From: Atherinomorus stipes
Taxonomy: Eukaryota > Chordata > Actinopteri > Atheriniformes > Atherinidae
NCBI GenBank assembly: GCA_023101725.1
Contig: JALJCO010001126.1
Location: forward strand, 1-64,000
Length of the DNA stretch: 64,000 nt
Direction of reading: 5' to 3'
Position numbers and translations under genes: made by a program
Part shown: positions 1,511 through 57,446 of the stretch, in pieces
Position numbering within the stretch: position 1 is the first letter of the stretch
Layout of the letters: the number at the start of each line of letters is the position of its first letter
Notes under the pieces: model-generated
The model's database searches: none
The model's input: only the letters and a program-made list of their open reading frames with translations
Told to the model about the DNA's origin: nothing

Positions 1511-2628
1511 TAGAGCTGGGCGATAACAGGAATTTCTGTAGCACGATCCGATTTAATGCGAAGAAGAGGGCCAGTATCGCCGATACCGATACCGATACTT
1601 TTTCATATTTAAGCTTCATAGATCCAAAGGATCCAAAAAGACCTAAGATAGAATTTAGTTAAACTCAGCTCTTGGGAATCGGGAAATAATAATGGGCTAT
1701 AAAGTACCTGTATGTAATCATTCTGTAGGCTATATATTTCACACGCAACACAAAAAGGTACTTATGTGCAATCAAATGTGAGCTGTATCGTATTTAGTAT
1801 ATTTGTTTCAATTCCAGAAAAATCATTAATCTAGTTTTTTACTAGTCCACCTCTTATGATAAATCTTTCAATCCTTATGTGTATTAATTTTTGCACTGTG
1901 TGCACTTGCCTGTTGCTTTTTAAAGTAATTCTATAAATGTCCCTGTTTTGGAATAATCAAAGCTTTATCTAATGTTAGATAACATTTTTCAATGGAATAA
2001 ATGTACTAGATTATTTCAATGTCTTAATAATATTTTTTAGTCTTTCCGCAAGCATTTGACTCAACTAACATGCACTTTGAAAAAGTAATATGAACTGATG
2101 CTGAAGATGACCACTCTCAAGTTCATTTTATAATGGTCCTCTGTTCCTGTAGCTCCGTGTTTTCTTCTTACTGCATGGGTTTCCATGTGCCTGTAGAGGT
2201 TTGTTGTGTTTTTACTGTATTTAACAGGCCCCGTTGCGATCTATACAGCTCGCTGTCGTTCCATTTTCTGCAACAAACTAAAGCCAAACAGCGCTTCTCT
2301 TCGTCATTTCGATACTCCGCCGTCTCGAGGAGAGGAGAGCGCTGAGTGCGTGGGCCAGGCTGAGCGGACCTATACGGCTGTTTGGCTGGCACCGCTGAGC
2401 CATGTGGATGGTGCAACAACTAATGACAAGAGGGGGAGAGTGCTGCTCCCTGCTCTGTGACAGCACAGCGCCACTCCAGACTTTTATTAATCCGTTTGCG
2501 CTGCAGTGAGTGCGTGCGGGAGAGGGAAAAAAGCTTGAGTATCGATCTTTTTACACGAGTATCGTTCAATATCAATACCAGTGTTGGTATCGAAAATATC
2601 GATATTGGTATCGATCCGCCCACCTATA
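1511..2628. mobile_element. hAT-type MITE nested in the 674-3987 element
   Basis: It is flanked by a perfect 8-bp duplication CTCTGTAC at 1503-1510 and 2629-2636. The left end reads TAGAGCTGGGCGATA and the right end, on the minus strand, TATAGGTGGGCGGAT. Inside both ends are runs of 'gataccgatacc' and 'ggtatcgat' sequence, the signature of fish hAT repeats with the 'gggcgat...tatcg' terminus. There is no transposase and only short spurious frames. It must postdate the surrounding material because it splits it. Confidence 0.85.
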
Positions 2629-3239
2629 CTCTGTACAGCTTGCTAGTTTACATATCACCATGGCGTGGACATTGATTACCTGTCACACCAGCCGAAATCG
2701 GTGAGCTGCATCATTACAACCCGTTCCCACCTGTCTTGACTGCGCACCTTCATCCAAGGTGTCTGGGGGCTTTTAGTGGAACAAGAAGCGTCGATGTGTA
2801 TGGCGAACAGCTCCAGCTCCGAGCTCCATTTCCACCACATGTTCTCTCCTTCTATGACCCTCAATAGTGTCAAGTATTGCTGGTGGGTCAGGACCAGCAC
2901 AGCGGCGCCGGCAAAGGACTGCTGTCGGCTGTAGACTGCAGTCAAAACCAGCCGCCTTCTCGTGGATTCACAGTCAAGCTAACCGGCATTATTTCAGCTG
3001 TAAACTTGGCTGGCTTGACCGCAGTGGCTCTGAATGGTTCATTTACCACCATTATCATGACGTTTTCTGTGCCTCGCGGTTTGGGTTGGGATATTCCAGT
3101 TGATTTCAGTTATCATGTATACAGGAGTAACTCTGTCTGCTCACGCATGTAAACGGGTTATTCCTAATCTTTCAGAAACCCGAATATTGACCTTAACCTG
3201 AATTTCAATGGTGACATGTAAACGTAGTCATTGACTCGG

Positions 3240-3290
3240 GTTTGCAATGACAGTTCATCATTATCATCATCATCATCACTCTGTTTCTAC
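3240..3290. repeat. ATC/CAT trinucleotide microsatellite
   Basis: A short run of tcatcattatcatcatcat type repeats inside the outer hAT element. Confidence 0.6.
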
Positions 3291-3397
3291 CACTCCGGGT
3301 CAGATGAAGATAGATCCAATGTGCAGAACTATGTAATATATTTTTATTATTAACTACTGTATTAACTGAATTTGGTGGTCATGGGTGAAAGAAATAA

Positions 3398-14711: not shown

Positions 14712-16085
14712 TTGGGGTCGCGCATTCATGATGCGCGCTTTCCAGGATTTAAATTTAAGACTTTTTAATGACCGGCGGGAACCCTGTAAATCTTTTTCCA
14801 CTGAACCAATATACAGTAATACTGCATTGTGATCAAATTTGTGATTTACACCCTTAATTTATCCCAAAAGCAAGAACCTTGAGTAAAGAGCAACCAACAC
14901 TTAAAATGTGAAAGCAAATTTCTGAAATCTGAGTAATAACAATGAAACCTGGCTCCAACACAAGCTTCTGACAATCAAATTCCCGTGTGAGCACTAGAGA
15001 ATTACCAGCAGTGGACAGTGTTGTATAATAGATGATGAAGAGGAGGATATATTTATGTATATTAATTCATATTTGTTTATGAGATTATAAATAAAACTTC
15101 ATGTTTGACCTCATTTATTGAACTAAAAGAAAAAAAAAACACGTGAAAGCATTTCATTAGTACTCGTCAAAACCTTTTAGTTGGAAATATGGGATTTTTA
15201 ACCCAGTGCATGGGCAAGGAAGTGGAAACATGACGCTAGCTAAAGTTAAGGTGAGAGAAAAGCAACATCTGTTTGGCCTCTCTTATTAAAAGCCGGAGGG
15301 TGAATCTGTCCGACAGAAGGAAAAGCATCTGCAGAGGTGTCCTGCAGCCTGACAGTCAGTGCTCACCCAAGTGTAGGAAGAGATTCCTGTCTGATTGACA
15401 AAACCTTCGGCCAAGGTTAGCCAGTGTGTGTGGGCGTGTGGGTTATGTGTGTGTGTGTGTATAGTGGTGTTGCTGAGGGGCCAATGAGTAATCACCCCTC
15501 TCTGGTTTTTCATTCTGTTCGGATGGCGGTGGGCGGAGGTAATCTCCATGCTAGTGTTGAGTCTAACCATTACAGACACATTCCGTTGTTGAAAATCACC
15601 TTGGGAACATTCAACACATGAAAAATCATACTGCTTCAACGCGGGCAATGTTTGATGGATGGCAATGAGTGGGAGGCAGCCCAGTCCCTCCCCATAGGTT
15701 TACATGGCATGCCAGCTCAACATCAACCACAACAAGCATTGAAATTCCAATGTGTTCTTTCAAGGCAGGGAAAAAATAACTAAATACATAAATAGATAAA
15801 TATAAATATTAGAGCTGTCAAAAGATTAATTCTGTTGTCAAACAAGAGATTTTTTTTTATCTTTAGTTCTGGTATATGCAGAAAATACTTTAACTTTTGT
15901 TTTTCAACTAAACGGCTAAAACCAAGCCAGAAATCTGTGAGTAATCCAGGATTCAGACCTGAATTTCAGCTTCACATTAAGACAGTTGTTAAGTCAGCCT
16001 GTGAGGACCGTATCAGTAGTATTCTGGACTAAACTGCCGCCATCTGAAGGACTTTAGGGAGACATGTAAGGACAGGGTTTCAGTA
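14712..16085. other. No feature recognised apart from short simple repeats
   Basis: A (TG)n run lies near 15440-15460. No gene or transposon ends are visible. Confidence 0.45.
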
Positions 16086-16093
16086 GGCCAGTC

Positions 16094-16307
16094 CAGTGAT
16101 TCCCAATCTTGGTCCTTAAGGCACACTATCCTGAAGACTTTCCATTTTGCCCTGCTGGGACACAGCTGATTCAAATTAAATGGATCTCTGATGAGCTCTG
16201 CACCAGTCTCTTACTGACCTGTTAATGTGAGTCAGCTGTGTTTCAACAGGGCAACATGGAAAGTCTTCAGGATAGTGTGCCCTACGGACCAAGATTGGAA
16301 ATCACTG
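16094..16307. mobile_element. Short palindromic MITE, copy 2 (best preserved)
   Basis: The left end CAGTGATTCCCAATCTTGG and the right end, on the minus strand, CAGTGATTTCCAATCTTGG continue as near-perfect inverted repeats for about 60 bp (ATCCTGAAGACTTTCCAT in both). The copy is uninterrupted, so it gives the intact central sequence 'caaattaaatggatc'. That is the empty site for the insertion in the third copy at 55364. No clear flanking duplication is visible. Confidence 0.85.
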
Positions 16308-16316
16308 GTCTAAAGA

Positions 16317-16837
16317 TACAGTTGAGCTTGGAAGTTTACTTACCCTCCCATTAAAGAGGAGGCTAAATTCACAATAGTGATTAAAATAACAAGAAACTGA
16401 GAAAAGTAATAATAAATAAAAATTTACTAGTTATTGTTGATTCAAAATATTGATTTTGAATTTTTGTTTATAACATAATTTAAGAAAAACAAACAAAACG
16501 GTCCCGGATAAATTAGAACACCAAACTCATGAACATTGGGTCAAAATACCTGTCAACAGGTGTAGACGTCTTATCGATCATTACAGAAAACACCTGATTG
16601 CAGTGATTGCCTCAAAGTGTTGCTCAACTACATTTTAGCTCAGAAGCCCCATCATGCTTGTTTACTTGTTTTATTTTTGGTGTATTTGTTTTTAATATTT
16701 CTGCTAAGCCACAATATAAAATCAATGTCATGATTTTCGTAGAATTTTTATTTATTATTACTTTTGTCAGTTTCGACTTATTTCACTGGCAGCTGATCTT
16801 TAATTGAAGGGTATGCAAACTTTCAAGCACGACTGTA
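16317..16837. mobile_element. Tc1/mariner-type MITE, family 'TACAG..TCATACCCTCC', copy 1
   Basis: Starts TACAGTTGAGCTTGG and ends, on the minus strand, TACAGTCGTGCTTGAAAG. It is collinear over its whole 520 bp with 44809-45318. The interior includes 'caaagtgttgctcaac' and 'ccccatcatgcttgtttac' in both copies. There is no transposase. It begins 9 bp after the palindromic MITE. Confidence 0.85.
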
Positions 16838-19839: not shown

Positions 19840-20052
19840 TACACTACTCACAAAAAGTTAAGGATATTTAGCTTTTTGTATGATGTCAGAATGAATCTAA
19901 AATCCACTACAACCTTTCCAGGTGAACTGAATTAAACTTTCTCTAAACTTTTCAATGCACATGTACATTGTTCGATGGTTAAATATTTATTTAACATCAT
20001 TCTGTTCTCCAAAAACAGAAAGTTAAATATCCCTAACCTCTTGTGAGTAGTA
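19840..20052. mobile_element. Tc1/mariner-type MITE (213 bp)
   Basis: The left end is TACACTACTCACAAAAAG and the right end, on the minus strand, TACTACTCACAAGAGGTTAG. Both begin with TA and continue inward as 'ttaaggata' and 'ttagggata'. There is no coding capacity. Confidence 0.85.
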
Positions 20053-21900: not shown

Positions 21901-23374
21901 GTTTCTATGAACGAGTCTACCAGGCCACTCTACCAGGTCACTATTAATCACAACAGCACAGTAATGCAACAAACGACAGGCTTACAGGTGAGGAATTCCA
22001 GGCTAGTTAAGGTGAATGCTGGATGGAAGTGAGGGTTATCTATAAACACAGAAATACAAAGCCATGAGGAACATTCATTTGGCAAAAAAACACATTCAAG
22101 GTATTAATTATTACTAATAAATCCCTTACAGTTAGGACTAAATATGCATATGTGTTCAAGACTACCAGTCACAGTTACTGGCATGTAACAGGTCAGCTAC
22201 TGTAGCTTAATAGAATTTAAAAAGGACATGGTGAATGGAGGAACACTTCTGAATAAGCAAGTCAGCGAAATAACATTAAAGGCTAAATAAACATCCTGTT
22301 CACAGGGTTCCAACGGATCCTTAAAAAGTCTTAAAAGGCATTGAATTCATTAATCTAAAAATAAGGCCTTAATTTGCATTAAAATGTCTGAAATACACAT
22401 TTCAAAAGTCTTAAAAATGTCGCACAATCATGCAAGTGGAACCATCAAAACAATGACGTGGTTGCAGCTGGGACTCTAAGAACAGATGCACGTCAATCAG
22501 GATGTAGCAACTTAAAATACAGCACGGGGAAGTGTAAATTTAATGAAAACTATCTGACACAAATTTCTCTTCATGGCTTAAAGCAGTACCAGGCAACGTG
22601 TACGAGGCACAGTGTGTTCTGTGCAAAAGCTGTTTTAAGCGATGGGAATCAAGGTGGTGGGTCTCACATGCAGTCCTCGAAACACAAAGCTTCAAATCGA
22701 GCTACCAACAAACACCAGATATTTCCCAGTTTTGTTCAACTCTCGTCTCCACCTTGCCTCCACCCCCGACATCAACAACCGGGACAACATCATCGCATCT
22801 CCGGACAATGTTCGGGTGTACACCCACACTGAAAGCAGAGGTACTATGGTCGTTGAACACCATGACAAAACCCCAATTATTCAAGTTTAATGAAGGATTG
22901 GAGACTTATTCAGTGTTATGTTCCCAGGCTCTGACATTGCCCACACATTTGCATGCGGACCTGACAAGACGGACTACATCGGCAAGTTTGGATTAGCCCC
23001 TTACATTTCAGAGCAGCTCGTTGCAGATGCTAACAAAGATGCATTTGTTTTAATGTTTGATGAGAGCCCCAACCAGACCACGAAATCAAAACAACTGGAT
23101 CTGCATATCCGTTATTGGTGCGAGGATTACGTCCAGTCAAGATATTTAGGGTTGCAGTTCATGGGAAATGGAACAGCCCAGGATTTACTTCACCATTTCA
23201 AAGTAAGTTATAATGGAAGCAGGAAATTAGAAAGATCACTGCCCATCTCTTGCATGCAAATGTGGTGTCCAAAACTTTCGATATAATGCAGTCCACTTCA
23301 ACACCATTGCAAATTATAACATCATTAATCAAAGGTTGAATATGGAACATTTTTATTAAAAGCTATATTGAAAA

Positions 23375-23428
23375 AAAAAAAAAAAAAAAAAACCTCCACA
23401 GGTCGTTTGGGGGGGGGGGGGGGGGTAC
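23375..23428. repeat. Poly(A) and poly(G) tracts
   Basis: About 20 A followed shortly by about 17 G, inside family A copy 1. The sister copy has short versions. Confidence 0.8.
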
Positions 23429-23643
23429 AGAGCATTTAAAAAAACATTTGGCCTAAAAATAATTATAAAATAATTTTTTAAGGGTTCAATAATGGCATTA
23501 TATTTACGTCTATAAGCCAATACACGCTGCCATTGCGGGTTGCCAAATATGATCTCTGTGTGGCAACAATATGTTGGGCACAGTTGGCTGGTACAGGGAA
23601 ACAGTGAAGATGGCGAGTAAAGCAGCAGAGTCCTGGAGATATT

Positions 23644-25441
23644 GGCCGCGTTTCCCAGTTAAGATTCTTCTTTGGATTAAAGAAGGCCTCAAGGAAGCTC
23701 TTCCCAACAAAGGATCGCAAAGATACGCCCGTTTCCCAGATTGCTTCTTTCGCGCGTTCTTATTTCCTGAGAAACGTCTTTGCTACGCTACATCTTAAGA
23801 AGGTCCTAACAGAAGCTATCCACTTCCGGGGGTGCTGAAAAAAAAGCAACCGAGGTCAGGTATACCGATCGACACCATTCATTTAGTGTGGAGGTTATTT
23901 TCCGACGCTGATATTGAGCCCATTTATACGTTTATGTGTTTGTGCAAGAAGACAAACTGTTAAAAATATGCATGTGATTACCAGTGATTGCAAATATTCA
24001 TTGAAAAGCTCATTGTATATTGTGTAATTGGCCAAATTGTGCTAAACAGGTGTAGGCGATTGGAAATTTACAGATGCCCTATAAATAATGGTCATTCTGA
24101 CGCTATTTGTTGACGTAATGGCTGAAGGGAACCCCGCCAAGAGGATTCCTGAAACGTGCGTGTGTGTCATATCGATGCTCAGTAGTAGAATCGGGAAACG
24201 GTGGCTAGGTGATTGAAACACTGAAAAAGGGTAACATTTTCTTGTTCGCAAAAAAATAGATCAACTCCTGGAACTCCTGACAAGCTTCAGCCAAAAAACG
24301 ATATGCACCAAACTTTCAAAAACTTTTTGTCGGGTTACTGTTGTCTGGGGAAATCTTGGAGGATGTAATCACCTACACACATCTTATGTTAAATGAGCTC
24401 CACATGGCAGCATTTGGTAAATGGGCGACATACTGTATCTGGTGCGTAAAGTGTGCGTCCAGGATGACGCACGTGCATTCAACAAACAGTAATCCCGCAA
24501 ATGGTTGACGTGACTTAATAAAGAATGGCTTGTTCTGCCACTCACTCGTGCCCAATTCTTCAAAGGCCTGCGTAAACGCAAAGTAATGGGAATGCTCCAC
24601 ATATTACACTGAGAGGTTGTGTTTGCCATTTTTGAATCACTGCCCAGTGCCACCTATGATTTTTAACATGACCTTTGTGCTGAGGTTGGCAGAGAAAGGT
24701 AGTCAGGGGGACCTAAATAGGTGGTTCGGGTGGTACTGAAGTGTTTTATAGTTCAATATCAAAGTGTGGCCGGAGGGGGTGGTTTGGTGACTGGAGGGGG
24801 GTGGTTTGGTTTGGGGGTGGTTTGGTTTGGTTCTCTGCACAGACATCTGATGCGGGTCTGATACGGGTATGCGTAAATGGCCATGTTTTTATTGAGCGAA
24901 GCAGGTGCATCTCATCATGAACAGCTGACAAATGCGTAAATATGACGAGAGTCCTCATAGATTGCGTATAATTTGCGTACAATTCCTACCGCAATGTTTT
25001 TGTTTCTGTGGTTGATACCCACAGGCCTATCTTGCCATAATGATTAAACTTAACCACAATATTTTCTGTCATTCACTCGGTAACTACAGTTTTCTTCCAT
25101 CATAGATGATTGACATTATGACATGAGTGAGAAAACATGACTCAATACAACAACTGATCCGTGAATAGGTCCATTTTTAATAATTTCCATTTTCTACTTT
25201 TTTTTCACGGGAAATAGTGTCGTTTCCAAAAGTGACCAGTAGATGGGCCTGTTGTTCCCTTAGCAGGGGGGAACGTTAAAGAAGGTTCGAAAGAGTGGGT
25301 CTGGCCGCTCCTGAAAATAAAGAAGCTCCTGAGTTAAGAGCGCATCTGGGAAACGCAACGTCCAAACAAGGCACCTTTAAGAAGTGACTTAAGAAGGACC
25401 TCAGCGTTAAGAGTGTCTTAACTAATCTGGGAAACGCGGCC
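23644..25441. mobile_element. 1.8-kb DNA element nested in family A copy 1
   Basis: Left end GGCCGCGTTTCCCAG, right end on the minus strand GGCCGCGTTTCCCAG: a perfect 15-bp inverted repeat. 'gcgtttcccaga'-like motifs recur inside both ends. ATT lies on each side (23641-23643, 25442-25444), suggesting a 3-bp target duplication as in PIF/Harbinger. However, the uninterrupted copy at 56.57 kb has three extra bases there, so the duplication is not proven. There is no transposase, and the interior is unassigned. A G-rich run lies at 24770-24840. Confidence 0.85.
24770..24842. repeat. G-rich degenerate tandem repeat
   Basis: Several near-repeats of 'gggggtggtttggtttggtt' in tandem. This strand has many runs of four or more G. 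Confidence 0.6.
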
Positions 25442-26689
25442 ATTATCTGTTGCTGAGGAGGAGTGACCTGAGAAGAGCAAAACCTGGAGTAAATTTAGTT
25501 GAAGACTTCACTAAATGGACCCACATAAACGTTTTCCACGGCGTCAAAACACGGAAATGGCGCCTTTTCTCCTGGATTGGTAAGCTAGCTTGTTTGCTAA
25601 CATGGCTAACGCTAGCTGTCAGCTATAAACTCCTCTGAGTTACTTGTTGGACATGCTGAAGACTGCTGGTCACTTGCGTATCGGCAGTGAGCCTGGCATC
25701 CCAGCGGCTGGAGTTGTTTTTCTGCCGTTGCAACAACAACCTAGATACATGTGATGTTGCTGTTCTGTCCGTTTTCCATATTCAACCTTTAAATTAATAT
25801 ATTTTATGAAAGTGTTGATCAAAACTGAACATTATGTAAAGGTAGAAGTTATGGCTGTTGTACTGGATCATATTATATTGTACAAATGTCTACATAGTAG
25901 GGTCTCCAGCTTTGACTGTTAAGGTGTCGAGAAACATTGTTATTGATACCTGCTCTGTGTCAGCCTTCTGTCTGTTACAAAGATATGATGTATGACAGTT
26001 GACCAAATCTTTACTTGCTTTATAATCCAGCATGATTTTTACATGCTACATGTGCTTCAACATTGTTTATTCTCAGGAAGGTGCCAAGGACCTGGATAGG
26101 CGTACGCTGTTGTCCGTCTCCATGGATGGTAAAACGTTAATTGGAAGTTCCTGGAGCTACTGCAGTAAGAAAAGGCAGAGCAGTATGGGGGTGCTCAACT
26201 GATTGTGGTAGGAAGCTGTGGCCTCCACACCTTACATAACGCTTGCAATGGTGGCTTTGTCATGTGGCAACTGGAAAAGTTTCTCAAGGCCATAAACGCG
26301 CTCTTCCATAATTCTTACCAAAACCACACAATTTCCACTGCCATTCTGTGGCCACCGGTGGCTTGAGAACCTACCAGCTGTGGAGAAGGCTTTAGAGGTA
26401 TGGCCCTCAGTGATCATGTACGTGGATGCAGTCAGGACCAAGAAGTTGCCAAATCCAGGAACTTCATCTTTTGGCACCCCTGAAGCGGCAAAGAAAGATC
26501 CTCTCTTTGCGGCAAAACTTCACTTCTACATGTCTGTCATCAGGACCTCCAGCTCCTTCCTGGCCACATACCAGTCAGATCAGCCAATGATGCCATTCCT
26601 TGTAAACGATTTGGCAGACCTGATGAAGGTAATTATATTCTATTACCATTGTTTCTGATGTTATACAGAAATTATATTATAGACATGAT

Positions 26690-35010: not shown

Positions 35011-35013
35011 ACA

Positions 35014-36522
35014 TACAGCTGTGTGAAAAAGATTTTGTCCCCTTCCTAATTTCTTACTTTTTTGCATGTTAGTCACACTTAAATATTTCAGATAATCAAA
35101 CAAATTTAAATGTGAGACAAAGATAACACATGTAAACAGAAATTGTAGTTTTTAAATGAAGATGCAATCAAGTGTTTGTGAAAACTGGCAATGAGTCTAC
35201 AGCAATGTGGATGAATTTTAGCCCACTCATCTTTGCAGGATTATTGTAATTCAGCCACATTGGAGGGTTTTTTCAGCATGAACCGCCTTTTTAAGGTCAT
35301 GCCACAGCATCTCTATTGGATTCAGAACAGGACTTTGACTAGGCCACTCCAAAGTCTTCATTTTGTTGTTCTTAAGCCTTTTCAGAGGTGGACTTGCTGG
35401 TGTGTTTTGGATCATTGTCCTGCTGCAGAACCCAAGTCCGCTTCAGCTTGAGGTCACCAACAGATGGCCGGACATTCTCCTTCAGGATTGTTTGGTAGAC
35501 AGCAGAATTCATGGTTCCATTTATCACAGCAAGTCTTTCAGGTCCTGAAGCAGCAAAAGAGCCCCAGACCATCACACTAAAACCACCATATTTTACTTTT
35601 GGAATGATGTTCCTTTTCTGAAATGCCGTGTTACTTGTACGCCAGATGTAATGGGACCTACACCTTCCAAAAAGTTCAACTTTTGTTTTGTCAGTCTTTT
35701 CCCAGAAGTCTTGGGGATCATTAAAATGCTTTCTGGCATCCTGAGACGAGCCTTTATGTTCTTTTTGCTCAGCAGTGATTTAAGTCTTGGAATTCTGCAA
35801 TCCAGGCCATTTTTGCCCAGTCTCTTTCTGATGGTGGAGTCATGAACGCTGACCTTGATTGAGGCAAGTGAGGCCTGCAGTTCTTGGATGTTGTTCTGGG
35901 TCTTTTGTGACCTCTTGGATGAGTCGTTGCTGTGCTCTTGGGGTAATTTTGGTCGGTCGGCCATTCCTGGGAAGGTTCACCACTGTTCCATGTTTTCACC
36001 ATTTGTGGATAATGGCTCTCACTGTGGTTCGCTGGAGTCCCAAAACTTTAGAAATGGCTTTGGAACCTTTTCCACACTGATAGATCCCAATAACTTTGTT
36101 TCTCATTTTTTACTGAATTTTTTTTGGATCGCAACATGATGTCCAGCTTTTGAGGATCTTTTTGGTCTATTAAACTTCATCAGGCAGGTCCTATTTAAGT
36201 GATTTCTTGATTGAGAACAGGTGTGGCAGTGATCCAGCCTTGGTGTGGCTAGAGAAATTGAACTCAGCTTTCCAAAGATGTGATAAACCACAGTTAATTT
36301 ATGTTTTAGCAGGGGGCAGTCACTTTTTCACACAGGACCATGGAGGTTTGGATCCACCCCCCAATAGAAATCTTCATTCAAAAACTGCATTTTCTGTTTT
36401 CTTGTGTTATCTTTGACTCACATTAAAATTTGTTTGATGATCTGAAACATTTAAGTGTGACAAACATGCAAAAAAGTAAGAAGTTAGGAAGGGGGCAAAC
36501 ACTTTTGTATTATACAGCTGTA
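35014..36522 (-). mobile_element. Tc1-type transposon, nearly full length, defective
   Basis: Left end TACAGCTGTGTGAAAAAG, right end on the minus strand TACAGCTGTATAATACAAAA. The ends are inverted copies for more than 110 bp ('cttacttttttgcatgtt', 'aatgtgag' in both). TA lies at each edge. The 1509-bp length is close to the usual 1.6 kb of fish Tc1 elements. The transposase frame is on the minus strand and broken. A fragment of a related element's end lies at 57001-57265. Confidence 0.95.
35195..36155 (-). pseudogene. Tc1 transposase pseudogene
   Basis: Reading the minus strand through changes of frame gives an N-terminal paired-like helix-turn-helix region near 36000-36100 and 'LLSKKNIKARL'. 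The first catalytic region is degenerate ('TDKTK' where family members have an Asp-Glu pair). 'VMVWGSFAASG' follows, then the second Asp in '[11 protein letters not shown]' and '[10 protein letters not shown]' with the catalytic Glu. The family protein is about 340 residues and uses a DDE triad to cut and join DNA at TA. Here at least three frame breaks and the altered first Asp region make it inactive. Confidence 0.9.
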
Positions 36523-36529
36523 TAATACA

Positions 36530-54635: not shown

Positions 54636-54974
54636 TTAAAGCAACCCTTACCGATGTTGCATTCTTACACTATTTTTCTAACAGGGTAAAATGCTATGAA
54701 TGAGATAATGGAACTCTGAAATACAAGACAGACCCACCATTAATCAATATAAAATATTATTCCAATCTCTAAATATTCAATGAAAACTCCAACCAATCCT
54801 TGAAGTGGGGTGCACCTCTAGGATTGTCCAACGGACCTGCCAGTCAGACCTTTGCTTCTGCATTGGGAGGCAGAGAGAATAAGGGGGTGTGTCTTAGAAG
54901 TGAGGCGGGACTGTTTATATTCAAATTATCTTGCTGTGCTTTCTGAAATGCAAGATTGGTAAAGGTTGCTTTAA
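54636..54974. mobile_element. TTAA-target MITE (339 bp) with confirmed empty site
   Basis: Left end TTAAAGCAACCCTTACCG, right end on the minus strand TTAAAGCAACCTTTACCA. The inverted repeat is about 20 bp. TTAA lies at both edges. Family D copy 1 at about 47248-47262 has a single TTAA at the equivalent place. Confidence 0.95.
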
Positions 54975-55699
54975 GCAATATAGTAAAAAATGCTCCTGGA
55001 AAACGTCATCCACCCTGCCTGAGAACTGTTGGTACTCTTGTATACCTTCAGTCTGGCAGTGGAGTACAGTGACGTTTTCTCAACCAGTCAGATGTAAATA
55101 TAACTGAATGCAGGCTGGGCAGGAACACGGCGGGGTTCATATACAGCAGTTGCTTCTCTATATGGGTCAGAAGTGTCCAAAATTTCCATCTTATTTCTGT
55201 ATATTTCCTTCTCAGCGACTTACAGGTGATCTAAACCAGTAATTCCCAACCCTGGTCCTTAAAGCACATTATCCTGAAGACTTTCCATGTTGCCCTGTTG
55301 AAACACAGCTAATTCACATTAACGGGTCAGAAGCAGACTGGTGCAGAGCTTGTCAGAGATCCATTTAAGGTTGGATATGGAATACAGGCAGAACAACGAC
55401 ATCACGTGGGTCTAGGTTGTAGTTGCAACGGCAGAAAACAACACCAGACGTTTGGTTGCCAGGCTTGCGGCCGATACGGCAATTGACTAGCAGCCTGCAC
55501 CATGTCCAACAAGTAATGCAGAGGAGTTTATAACTGACAGGTAACGTTAGCCCCGCTAACAAGAGAGTTAGCTTATCGATCCAGGAGAAAAGTCGCCATT
55601 TCCATGATGCCGTGAGGCATTTCCATGAGGTCCATTTGGTGTAGTCTTTACCTAAATTTACTCCAGTTTTTTGCTCTTCTCAGGTCACTCATCTTCTGA

Positions 55700-57000
55700 G
55701 CCAGATACATTACAATACAATAAAACTGTATTTATATAGCACTTTAAAACAGCAACAGCTAACACGAAGTGCTGAACATGACAAAACCCCCCCAAAAATG
55801 AAAAAATCAAATAACAAATCACCAATAAAAACTACTAACAAAGCAAGGTCTCGTGCTGGATAAAGACCAGTGGTAAAAGTGGCTTTTAATTACTTCTAAA
55901 ATCATTAAAGGGCAAACTAAAGCAACTAAAAGAGAGCAAATTCTCATGCTGAGTTAAAAGCCAAGCCATAAAAGTGGGTTTTGAAATTTGTTTTAAAAAC
56001 AGCCAGTGAGGAGGCCTGCCTGATGTGGAACCCTAAACTATTCAACATCCTGGTGGCAGCAACAAAGAAGGCCCTGTCCCCTCTGAGCTTACTCCTGGAC
56101 CTCGGTTCTTCAAGGAGCAGATGATCAGCCGAGCGGAGGCACCGTGTAGGGGCGTAGGGGTGATGGAGCTCAGAGAGGTAGAACGGGGAGAGGCCATTTA
56201 AAGTCTTAAAAACAAATAAAAGAATCTTAAAATGGACCTTTAAAGGTTGAATATGGAACATTTTTATTAAAAGCTATATTTTTTTAAAAATAATACCTCC
56301 ACAGGTCGTTTGGGGGTGTACAGAGTGAAAGTACAACATTTCCCAGAAAAATTATTTTTAGCCTAAAAATAATTATAAAATAATTTTTTACAGGTTCGAT
56401 AATGGCATTTTATTTACGTCTATAAGCCAATACACGCCGCCATTGCAGATTGCCAAATACGATCTATGTGTGGACACAATATTTCGGTCATAGTCAGGCT
56501 TGTACAGGGGAAAACCGTGGAGACGACGAGTGAAGCAGCTGCTTCAGAGCCCTGGAGATATTGTTATCTGTTCCTGAGGAGGAGTGACCTGAGAAGAGCA
56601 AAACCTGGAGTAAATTTAGGTGAAGACTTCACTAAATGGACCCACATAAACGTTTTCCATGGAGTAAAACACGGAAATGGCGACTTTTCTCCTGGATCGG
56701 TAAGCTAGCTTGTTTGCTAACATGGCTAACGTTAGCTGTCAGTTATAAACTTCTCTGTGTTACTTGTTGGACATGCTGCAGACCGTTGGTCACTTGCGTA
56801 TCGGCAGTGAGCCTGGCATCCCAGCGGCTGGAGTTGTTTTTCTGCAGTTGCAACTACAACCTAGACACACGTGATGTCGCTGTTCTGTCCGTATTCCATA
56901 TTCAACCTTTAAGTGCAAAGGCAGCCAATGGAAGGAGGCCAGGATTGGAGTGATGTGCTCCCTCTTACGCTCTCCAGTTAGCAGACGGGCGGCAGCGTCT
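55700..57000 (-). pseudogene. LINE reverse-transcriptase C-terminus and 3' end, interrupted by family A copy 3
   Basis: Minus strand: 'AAARLLTGERKREHITPI' and 'HWLPLH' at 56999-56913. After skipping the insertion the same frame goes on with 'LKVHFKILLFVFKTLNGL', 'PRSRSKLRGDRAF' and 'FKTNFKTHFYG' (56243-55944). The frame is continuous across the junction. It ends in a tail with 'tgctatataaataca' near 55715-55745. The fragment is 5'-truncated and belongs to the L2/CR1-like group of fish LINEs, by motif. Confidence 0.8.
56245..56907 (+). mobile_element. Family A MITE, copy 3 (intact)
   Basis: Complete 663-bp copy with GGTTGAATATGGAA at both ends in inverted orientation. TTTAA is at 56239-56243 and 56908-56912. 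It is inserted in the LINE frame. It supplies the reference for copy 1, whose 1.8-kb insertion it lacks. Confidence 0.95.
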
Positions 57001-57265
57001 CTGTGAAAAAGTGTTTGCCTCTTTCCTGATTTCTTATTTTTTTTGCATGTTTGTCACACATATTTGTTTCAGATAATCAAACAAATTTAAATGTGAGACA
57101 AATATAACACATGTAAACAGAAAATGCAGTTTTTAAATAAAAATTTGTATCTTTAAGGGGAGAAAAAAATCCAAACCTTCATGGCCCTGTGTGAAAAACT
57201 GATTGCCCCTTAACCTAATAACTGTTTGGGCCGCCCTTAGTAGCAACGACTGGAAAAGCTGGACT
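57001..57265. repeat. Tc1-type transposon end fragment
   Basis: The first 190 bp match the left end of 35014-36522 ('ctgtgaaaaagtg', 'tcagataatcaaacaaattt', 'taacacatgtaaacagaaa'). It is followed by 'gccgcccttagtagcaacga' from the interior of such elements. Its other end is missing. Confidence 0.8.
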
Positions 57266-57446
57266 TTCATTCTGCACCCCTCCAAACGGCTCACGGAGGT
57301 ATTTTTTTTAGTAAAAATTCTCCATATTCAACCTTTAATTTGAATCAGCTGTGTCCTAGCAGGGCGAAATGGAAAGTCTTCAGGATAGTGTGCCTTGAGG
57401 ACCAGAGTTGGGAATCATTGATTTAAACAACTATTCTGTAGTCCAG

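What the first reader, a model, noticed from the sequence alone, without database searches (positions are those of the whole stretch)
55229..57428. Four-deep transposon nest that can be unpicked from sister copies in the same window
Order of events read from the sequence: (1) a palindromic hAT-type MITE inserted (flanks ATCTAAAC/ATTTAAAC); (2) family A entered it at TTTAA, duplicated on both sides, while the intact MITE at 16.2 kb has TTTAA once; (3) a 5'-truncated LINE, with a Tc1 end fragment next to it, landed inside family A; (4) another, intact family A landed inside the LINE reverse-transcriptase frame, again at TTTAA. The LINE frame reads straight through when the last insert is skipped. 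A family inserting into a nest already containing itself shows two separate activity periods.
Basis: seen in the sequence. Interest (0 to 1): 0.75.

Follow-up and report, generated by a model that had tools for sequence, protein, structure and literature searches.

The report
Ordinary nested transposons in fish DNA
A short stretch of fish DNA holds jumping genes inserted one inside another, including two copies of one family that arrived at different times; it is a clean example of a familiar process rather than something new.

Summary
The nest is real. Skipping the insert plus one TTAA restores a 214-bp hAT-type MITE with no gap against a 20-copy consensus; a LINE frame reads through the innermost insert for 128 codons. 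Corrections: family A duplicates TTAA, not TTTAA (25 of 30 loci on both sides; the base before TTAA is T in 8 of 29), and its AG..CT ends fit Kolobok. The outer A copy has lost about 218 bp of its middle. The Tc1 piece meets A at a shared CTG; 0 of 39 other scored hits carry its junction with the LINE. Dating: inner A differs from consensus at 13 of 665 sites (2.0%), outer A 36/338 (10.7%), LINE 57/604 (9.4%), Tc1 18/236 (7.6%), MITE 13/214 (6.1%); only inner A stands apart, and the outermost layer has the lowest value of the other four. Outer and inner A are different subfamilies (17 versus 0 old states of 20), but intermediates exist, so "two separate periods" is not shown. MITE, then A, then LINE is the simplest order, not proven, because cut-and-paste elements can carry cargo. 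Ordinary biology; new member of a known kind.

The parts
55229..55236 (.). 8-bp target duplication of the hAT-type MITE, left (ATCTAAAC)
55237..55364 (-). hAT-type MITE, left part (minus strand relative to the 16.1-kb copy)
55365..55368 (.). TTAA, left copy of the outer family A target duplication
   Evidence: joining across it gives the 214-bp MITE without a gap
55369..55707 (-). outer family A copy, positions 665-322 of the consensus; old subfamily
55708..56239 (-). LINE 3' part with pentamer tail (ACAAT)n at its left end
56240..56243 (.). TTAA, left copy of the inner family A target duplication
56244..56908 (+). inner family A copy, 665 bp, intact ends AGGTTGAATATGGA..; young subfamily
56909..56912 (.). 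TTAA, right copy of the inner family A target duplication
56913..56998 (-). LINE, 5'-truncated remainder; same reading frame as the piece ending at 56243
56999..57252 (+). Tc1 end fragment (terminal repeat side at left, about 6 terminal bases lost); last three bases CTG shared with A
57250..57334 (-). outer family A copy, positions 103-1 of the consensus (A 104-321 missing)
57335..57338 (.). TTAA, right copy of the outer family A target duplication
57339..57420 (-). hAT-type MITE, right part
57421..57428 (.). 8-bp target duplication of the MITE, right (ATTTAAAC)

Best explanation
An ordinary nest of mobile elements in what is most likely a fish genome. A hAT-type MITE sits at an 8-bp target duplication. 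A Kolobok-type MITE (family A, old subfamily) lies in it at TTAA. A 5'-truncated LINE lies in that A copy, its tail at the spot where A itself reads ACAAT. A Tc1 end fragment and a deletion of about 218 bp of A lie beside the LINE. A young-subfamily A copy lies in the LINE at TTAA. Shown: topology, the restored MITE and LINE frame, TTAA targets, the youth of inner A, two different A subfamilies. Inferred: that the outer layers arrived singly in the order MITE, A, (Tc1 and LINE); that Tc1 was cut back by a microhomology deletion; that the LINE entered by target-primed reverse transcription; that family A stayed active over a long span through successive subfamilies.
For: Joined MITE: 214 sites aligned, 0 gaps, against the consensus of 20 fetched copies. 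Skipping inner A and one TTAA joins two LINE pieces in one frame, 128 codons open, with stops in the other two frames; 11 of 12 fetched LINE relatives have no A insert there, the 12th (L110) is not comparable. Family A: 665-bp consensus from 29 copies, TTAA both sides in 25 of 30 loci. Inner A 13/665 versus MITE 13/214 p=0.004, Tc1 18/236 p=0.0002, outer A 36/338 p=7e-9, LINE 57/604 p=4e-9. Outer A has 17 old and 2 young states at 20 diagnostic sites, inner 0 and 20. Proteins like the LINE frame of relative L103 carry PF00078 in 22 of the 120 listed; relatives are 5'-truncated at various points. Junctions seen nowhere else among the scored places: outer A/LINE 0 of 39 and 0 of 39, LINE/Tc1 0 of 39; each call scored only 40 of 1755 to 3336 candidates.
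Against: The MITE (6.1%) is not more diverged than outer A (10.7%) or LINE (9.4%), as a simple series predicts (p=0.07 and 0.16; pooled contents versus MITE p=0.12). Consensuses come from best-scoring copies only: 29 for A, 20 of 39 for the MITE, 6 of 12 fetched (of 39) for the LINE, 5 of 39 for Tc1; the old-A consensus comes from 12 copies found with the outer copy as query. The LINE shows no target duplication because one side abuts Tc1.
Confidence: 0.85

Rival explanations
1. The outer A copy already carried the LINE and the Tc1 piece when it transposed into the MITE: a composite moved by cut and paste, so steps 2 and 3 of the reader are reversed.
For: Outer A still has both end repeats (one end base lost) and a TTAA duplication. 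Its contents are nominally more diverged than the MITE that hosts it (111/1178, 9.4% pooled, versus 13/214, 6.1%, p=0.12).
Against: The difference is not significant. Private changes are of similar frequency: MITE 8/214 (22 others compared), outer A 14/338 (60 others), LINE 33/604 (12 others) (the numbers of others differ, so this is rough). No second copy of the composite among the 39 other scored places. One candidate precedent, two A copies with the same inner insert (L044, L064), is a segmental duplication with the same flanks.
Confidence: 0.12
2. Family A has TTTAA (5 bp) as target and two separate bursts.
For: Inner and outer copies in this window both have T before TTAA. Outer and inner A differ in subfamily.
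Against: In 29 loci the base before TTAA is A 10, T 8, C 6, G 5. Eight copies have 5-9 of 20 old states, at 2.1-5.6% from the young consensus. Four copies met as by-catch or in the window rather than as best hits (third copy, L002b, L016b, L078) lie at 4.1-5.6%.
Confidence: 0.05
3. The LINE and Tc1 pieces came in together as a chimera made by template switching during reverse transcription.
For: They abut with no family A sequence between them.
Against: The Tc1 piece meets the LINE near its own terminal repeat and meets A at a 3-base CTG identity, as after a deletion. None of the 39 other scored hits has the LINE/Tc1 junction.
Confidence: 0.08

Closest known systems
Kolobok superfamily and T2-type MITEs of Xenopus (PMC9587614 and PMC6004289; passages seen)
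   Same: TTAA target duplication, 5'-RR..YY-3' ends; some T2 subfamilies are described there as active over very long spans with old and young members, as family A appears here.
   Different: Family A begins AGGTT, not the AGGRR motif given for T2; no transposase was linked to it here.
hAT-type MITEs with 8-bp target duplications
   Same: CAGTG..CACTG ends, 8-bp duplications, near-palindromic.
   Different: Nothing notable; the assignment to hAT rests on recalled end and target motifs.
LINEs of fishes with a PF00078 reverse transcriptase
   Same: Relative L103's 197-aa frame: best hits 83% identity over 99%; a Sparus aurata entry named 'Reverse transcriptase domain-containing protein' 81% over 91%; 5' truncation and tandem pentamer tail.
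   Different: Nothing notable; a clade (L2/CR1-like) is recalled, not tested.
Dating by transpositions in transpositions (TinT, PMC3014933, passages seen; REANNOTATE, PMC2672092, search listing with abstract start only)
   Different: TinT pools many nests; a single nest does not establish activity periods.

Membership tests
Kolobok (non-autonomous) | TTAA 4-bp target duplication (PMC9587614) | tested here: met
   25 of 30 loci both sides; the other 5 have one side changed or an end not found exactly
Kolobok (non-autonomous) | ends 5'-RR and YY-3' (PMC9587614) | tested here: met
   665-bp consensus AG..CT
Kolobok (non-autonomous) | mobilised by a Kolobok transposase | not tested
   no autonomous partner was sought
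T2-type MITE | terminal AGGRR motif (PMC6004289) | tested here: not met
   family A begins AGGTT
hAT MITE | 8-bp target duplication | tested here: met
   ATCTAAAC/ATTTAAAC, 7 of 8 bases; seen also at other copies, for example L092; not counted over all copies; the 16.1-kb copy has no clear one
hAT MITE | mobilised by a hAT transposase | not tested
   none sought
LINE | frame belongs to a reverse-transcriptase protein | tested here: met
   for relative L103: 2011 proteins at E<=0.001, 22 of the 120 listed carry PF00078 by my count. The nest pieces themselves match no Pfam model, nor does L103's frame above a weak chance hit
LINE | variable 5' truncation and a repeated 3' tail | tested here: met
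   12 relatives aligned; (ACAAT)n tail, several different 5' ends
Tc1 | TA target next to the end repeat | tested here: inconclusive
   TA before CAG at the 5 fetched relatives; the nest piece has lost its last bases

The most novel reading that the evidence does not exclude
The MITE is younger than what it contains: an old Kolobok-type element already loaded with LINE and Tc1 debris moved as a cargo-carrying unit into the MITE, so nest order and time order differ.
Probability: 0.12. Interest if true: 0.4.

Novelty: new member of a known kind. Interest (0 to 1): 0.2.

Why it matters
It is a resolved example in which empty sites can be read from sister copies. It suggests that a Kolobok-type MITE stayed mobile long enough for an old-subfamily copy to be hit by a LINE and a young-subfamily copy to enter that LINE. 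It also warns that nest order alone does not date cut-and-paste elements: four of the five layers here cannot be ranked by divergence.

Tried and rejected
Composite precedent: L044 and L064 both carry a Tc1-type MITE inside A, which looked like a moving composite; they are 95% alike over 3.3 kb including flanks, so a segmental duplication. The first divergence of outer A (0.286) was inflated by a misplaced 97-bp piece and was replaced by the right half only. The apparent inversion of ages (MITE below its contents) was tested and is not significant. Pfam on the two nest LINE pieces: nothing. Upstream stretch L113: its only frame of 90 or more codons is not one I recognise as LINE; it was not searched further. 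Viral-contig pattern hits L031-L034 were not used. The unbiased genome sample was limited to 13 kb (L078, L111, L112), with one A copy. Six paper searches were seen as listings; passages were read in three papers. No claim is made that such nests are unreported.

Full report
The window lies in a 1.18-Gb genome held as G000. The species is not given; the LINE protein's named relatives are mostly fishes, so I take it to be a fish.

Structure. The outer element is a near-palindromic 214-bp MITE with 8-bp flanks ATCTAAAC/ATTTAAAC. Its halves match the copies at 16.1 and 10.0 kb. When the halves are joined with one TTAA, the 214 sites align without a gap to the consensus of 20 fetched relatives. 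These are 20 of the 39 other places scored; the 19 not fetched include C5033, whose match also covers flanking sequence. The 16.1-kb and 10.0-kb copies show the site unfilled.

Family A. A search with the inner copy gave 3758 first-look candidates, of which 40 were scored. From 29 fetched copies (the inner one left out) the consensus is 665 bp, AGGTTGAATATGG..CCATATTCAACCT. TTAA lies on both sides in 25 of 30 loci (inner included); the base before the left TTAA is A 10, T 8, C 6, G 5 in 29 loci. TTAA with 5'-RR..YY-3' ends is the Kolobok rule as stated in PMC9587614 (passages). Family A misses the AGGRR motif given for Xenopus T2-MITEs (PMC6004289, passages).

Two subfamilies. Right halves of 58 other copies, the three window copies and the young consensus were compared; loci fetched twice were dropped. 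A consensus of 12 copies more than 8% from the young consensus differs from it at 20 of 344 sites. The outer copy has 17 old and 2 young states, the inner 0 and 20, the third window copy 2 and 17. The 12 copies were found with the outer copy as query, which biases the set; but independent private changes would not agree among 12 copies. Eight copies have 5-9 old states, so there is a series. The best relative of the outer copy is 86% alike. On a tree of right halves the outer copy has the longest terminal branch (0.099; inner 0.012).

LINE. Minus strand, tail (ACAAT)n at about 55708, where family A itself reads ACAAT; truncated at about 56998. The two pieces share one frame, open for 128 codons when the inner A and one TTAA are skipped; the other two frames have stops. 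Of 12 fetched relatives (of 39 other places), 9 read CCCTAAAGTGC at the insertion point, L100 a variant without TTAA, L105 CCCTTAAGTGC, and L110 cannot be compared. So the LINE copy probably gained its TTAA by point change before it was hit. The frame is near the end of the LINE protein: the 197-aa frame of relative L103 finds 2011 proteins, 22 of the 120 listed with PF00078.

Tc1 piece. 56999-57252. Five fetched relatives (of 39) go on as Tc1 where the nest turns into family A at a shared CTG. Of the 39 other scored hits none includes the LINE side. Family A positions 104-321 are missing. The simplest account is a Tc1 in A, cut back by a microhomology deletion, and a LINE insertion that removed the rest; this is inference.

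Dating. Differences from own-family consensus with 95% limits: MITE 13/214 (3.3-10.2%), outer A 36/338 to the old (7.6-14.4%) or 51/338 to the young consensus (11.4-19.4%), Tc1 18/236 (4.6-11.8%), inner A 13/665 (1.0-3.3%); LINE 57/604 (7.2-12.1%) to the consensus of the 6 relatives of its type, 54/588 to all 12, 74/582 to the other type. Inner A is less diverged than each of the others (p 0.004 or less). The other four cannot be told apart (outer A-MITE 0.07, LINE-MITE 0.16, others higher). A divergence also contains what the source copy had before it moved, so these are upper bounds on age.

Order. A nest shows which DNA lay inside which, not always when it arrived at the site: a cut-and-paste element can travel with an insert. 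No second copy of A with this LINE was seen among the 39 other places scored, so single arrivals are preferred but not proved.

Verdict. A correct and well-read observation, partly corrected; ordinary biology.

Noticed in passing
23333-25788: Third family A copy, split at position 320/321 by a 1.8-kb element (23644-25441) with ends GGCCGCGTTTCCCAG and ATT on both sides; longest frame inside it 89 codons. It sits within a few bases of the point where the LINE enters the outer A copy.
   Followed up: partly
54636-54974: Another TTAA-flanked element, 331 bp, ends AGCAACCCTT/AGCAACCTTT, just left of the nest.
   Followed up: no
L044, L064: Two contigs (C6568, C3247) share 3.3 kb at 95% including an A copy with a Tc1-type MITE inside: a segmental duplication. 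A relative of that MITE is at window 19841-20051 (91%).
   Followed up: yes
G000 C7418:82472-83919 and C6240:2482016-2483242: Pairs of family A copies in opposite orientation, 104 and 4 bp apart, which may reflect repeated insertion next to itself.
   Followed up: no
G000 C5033:17232-17468: 97% match to window 16085-16320 including flanks: a duplicate or allelic contig of that stretch.
   Followed up: no
35013-36523: A Tc1-like element with inverted ends, 88% alike.
   Followed up: no
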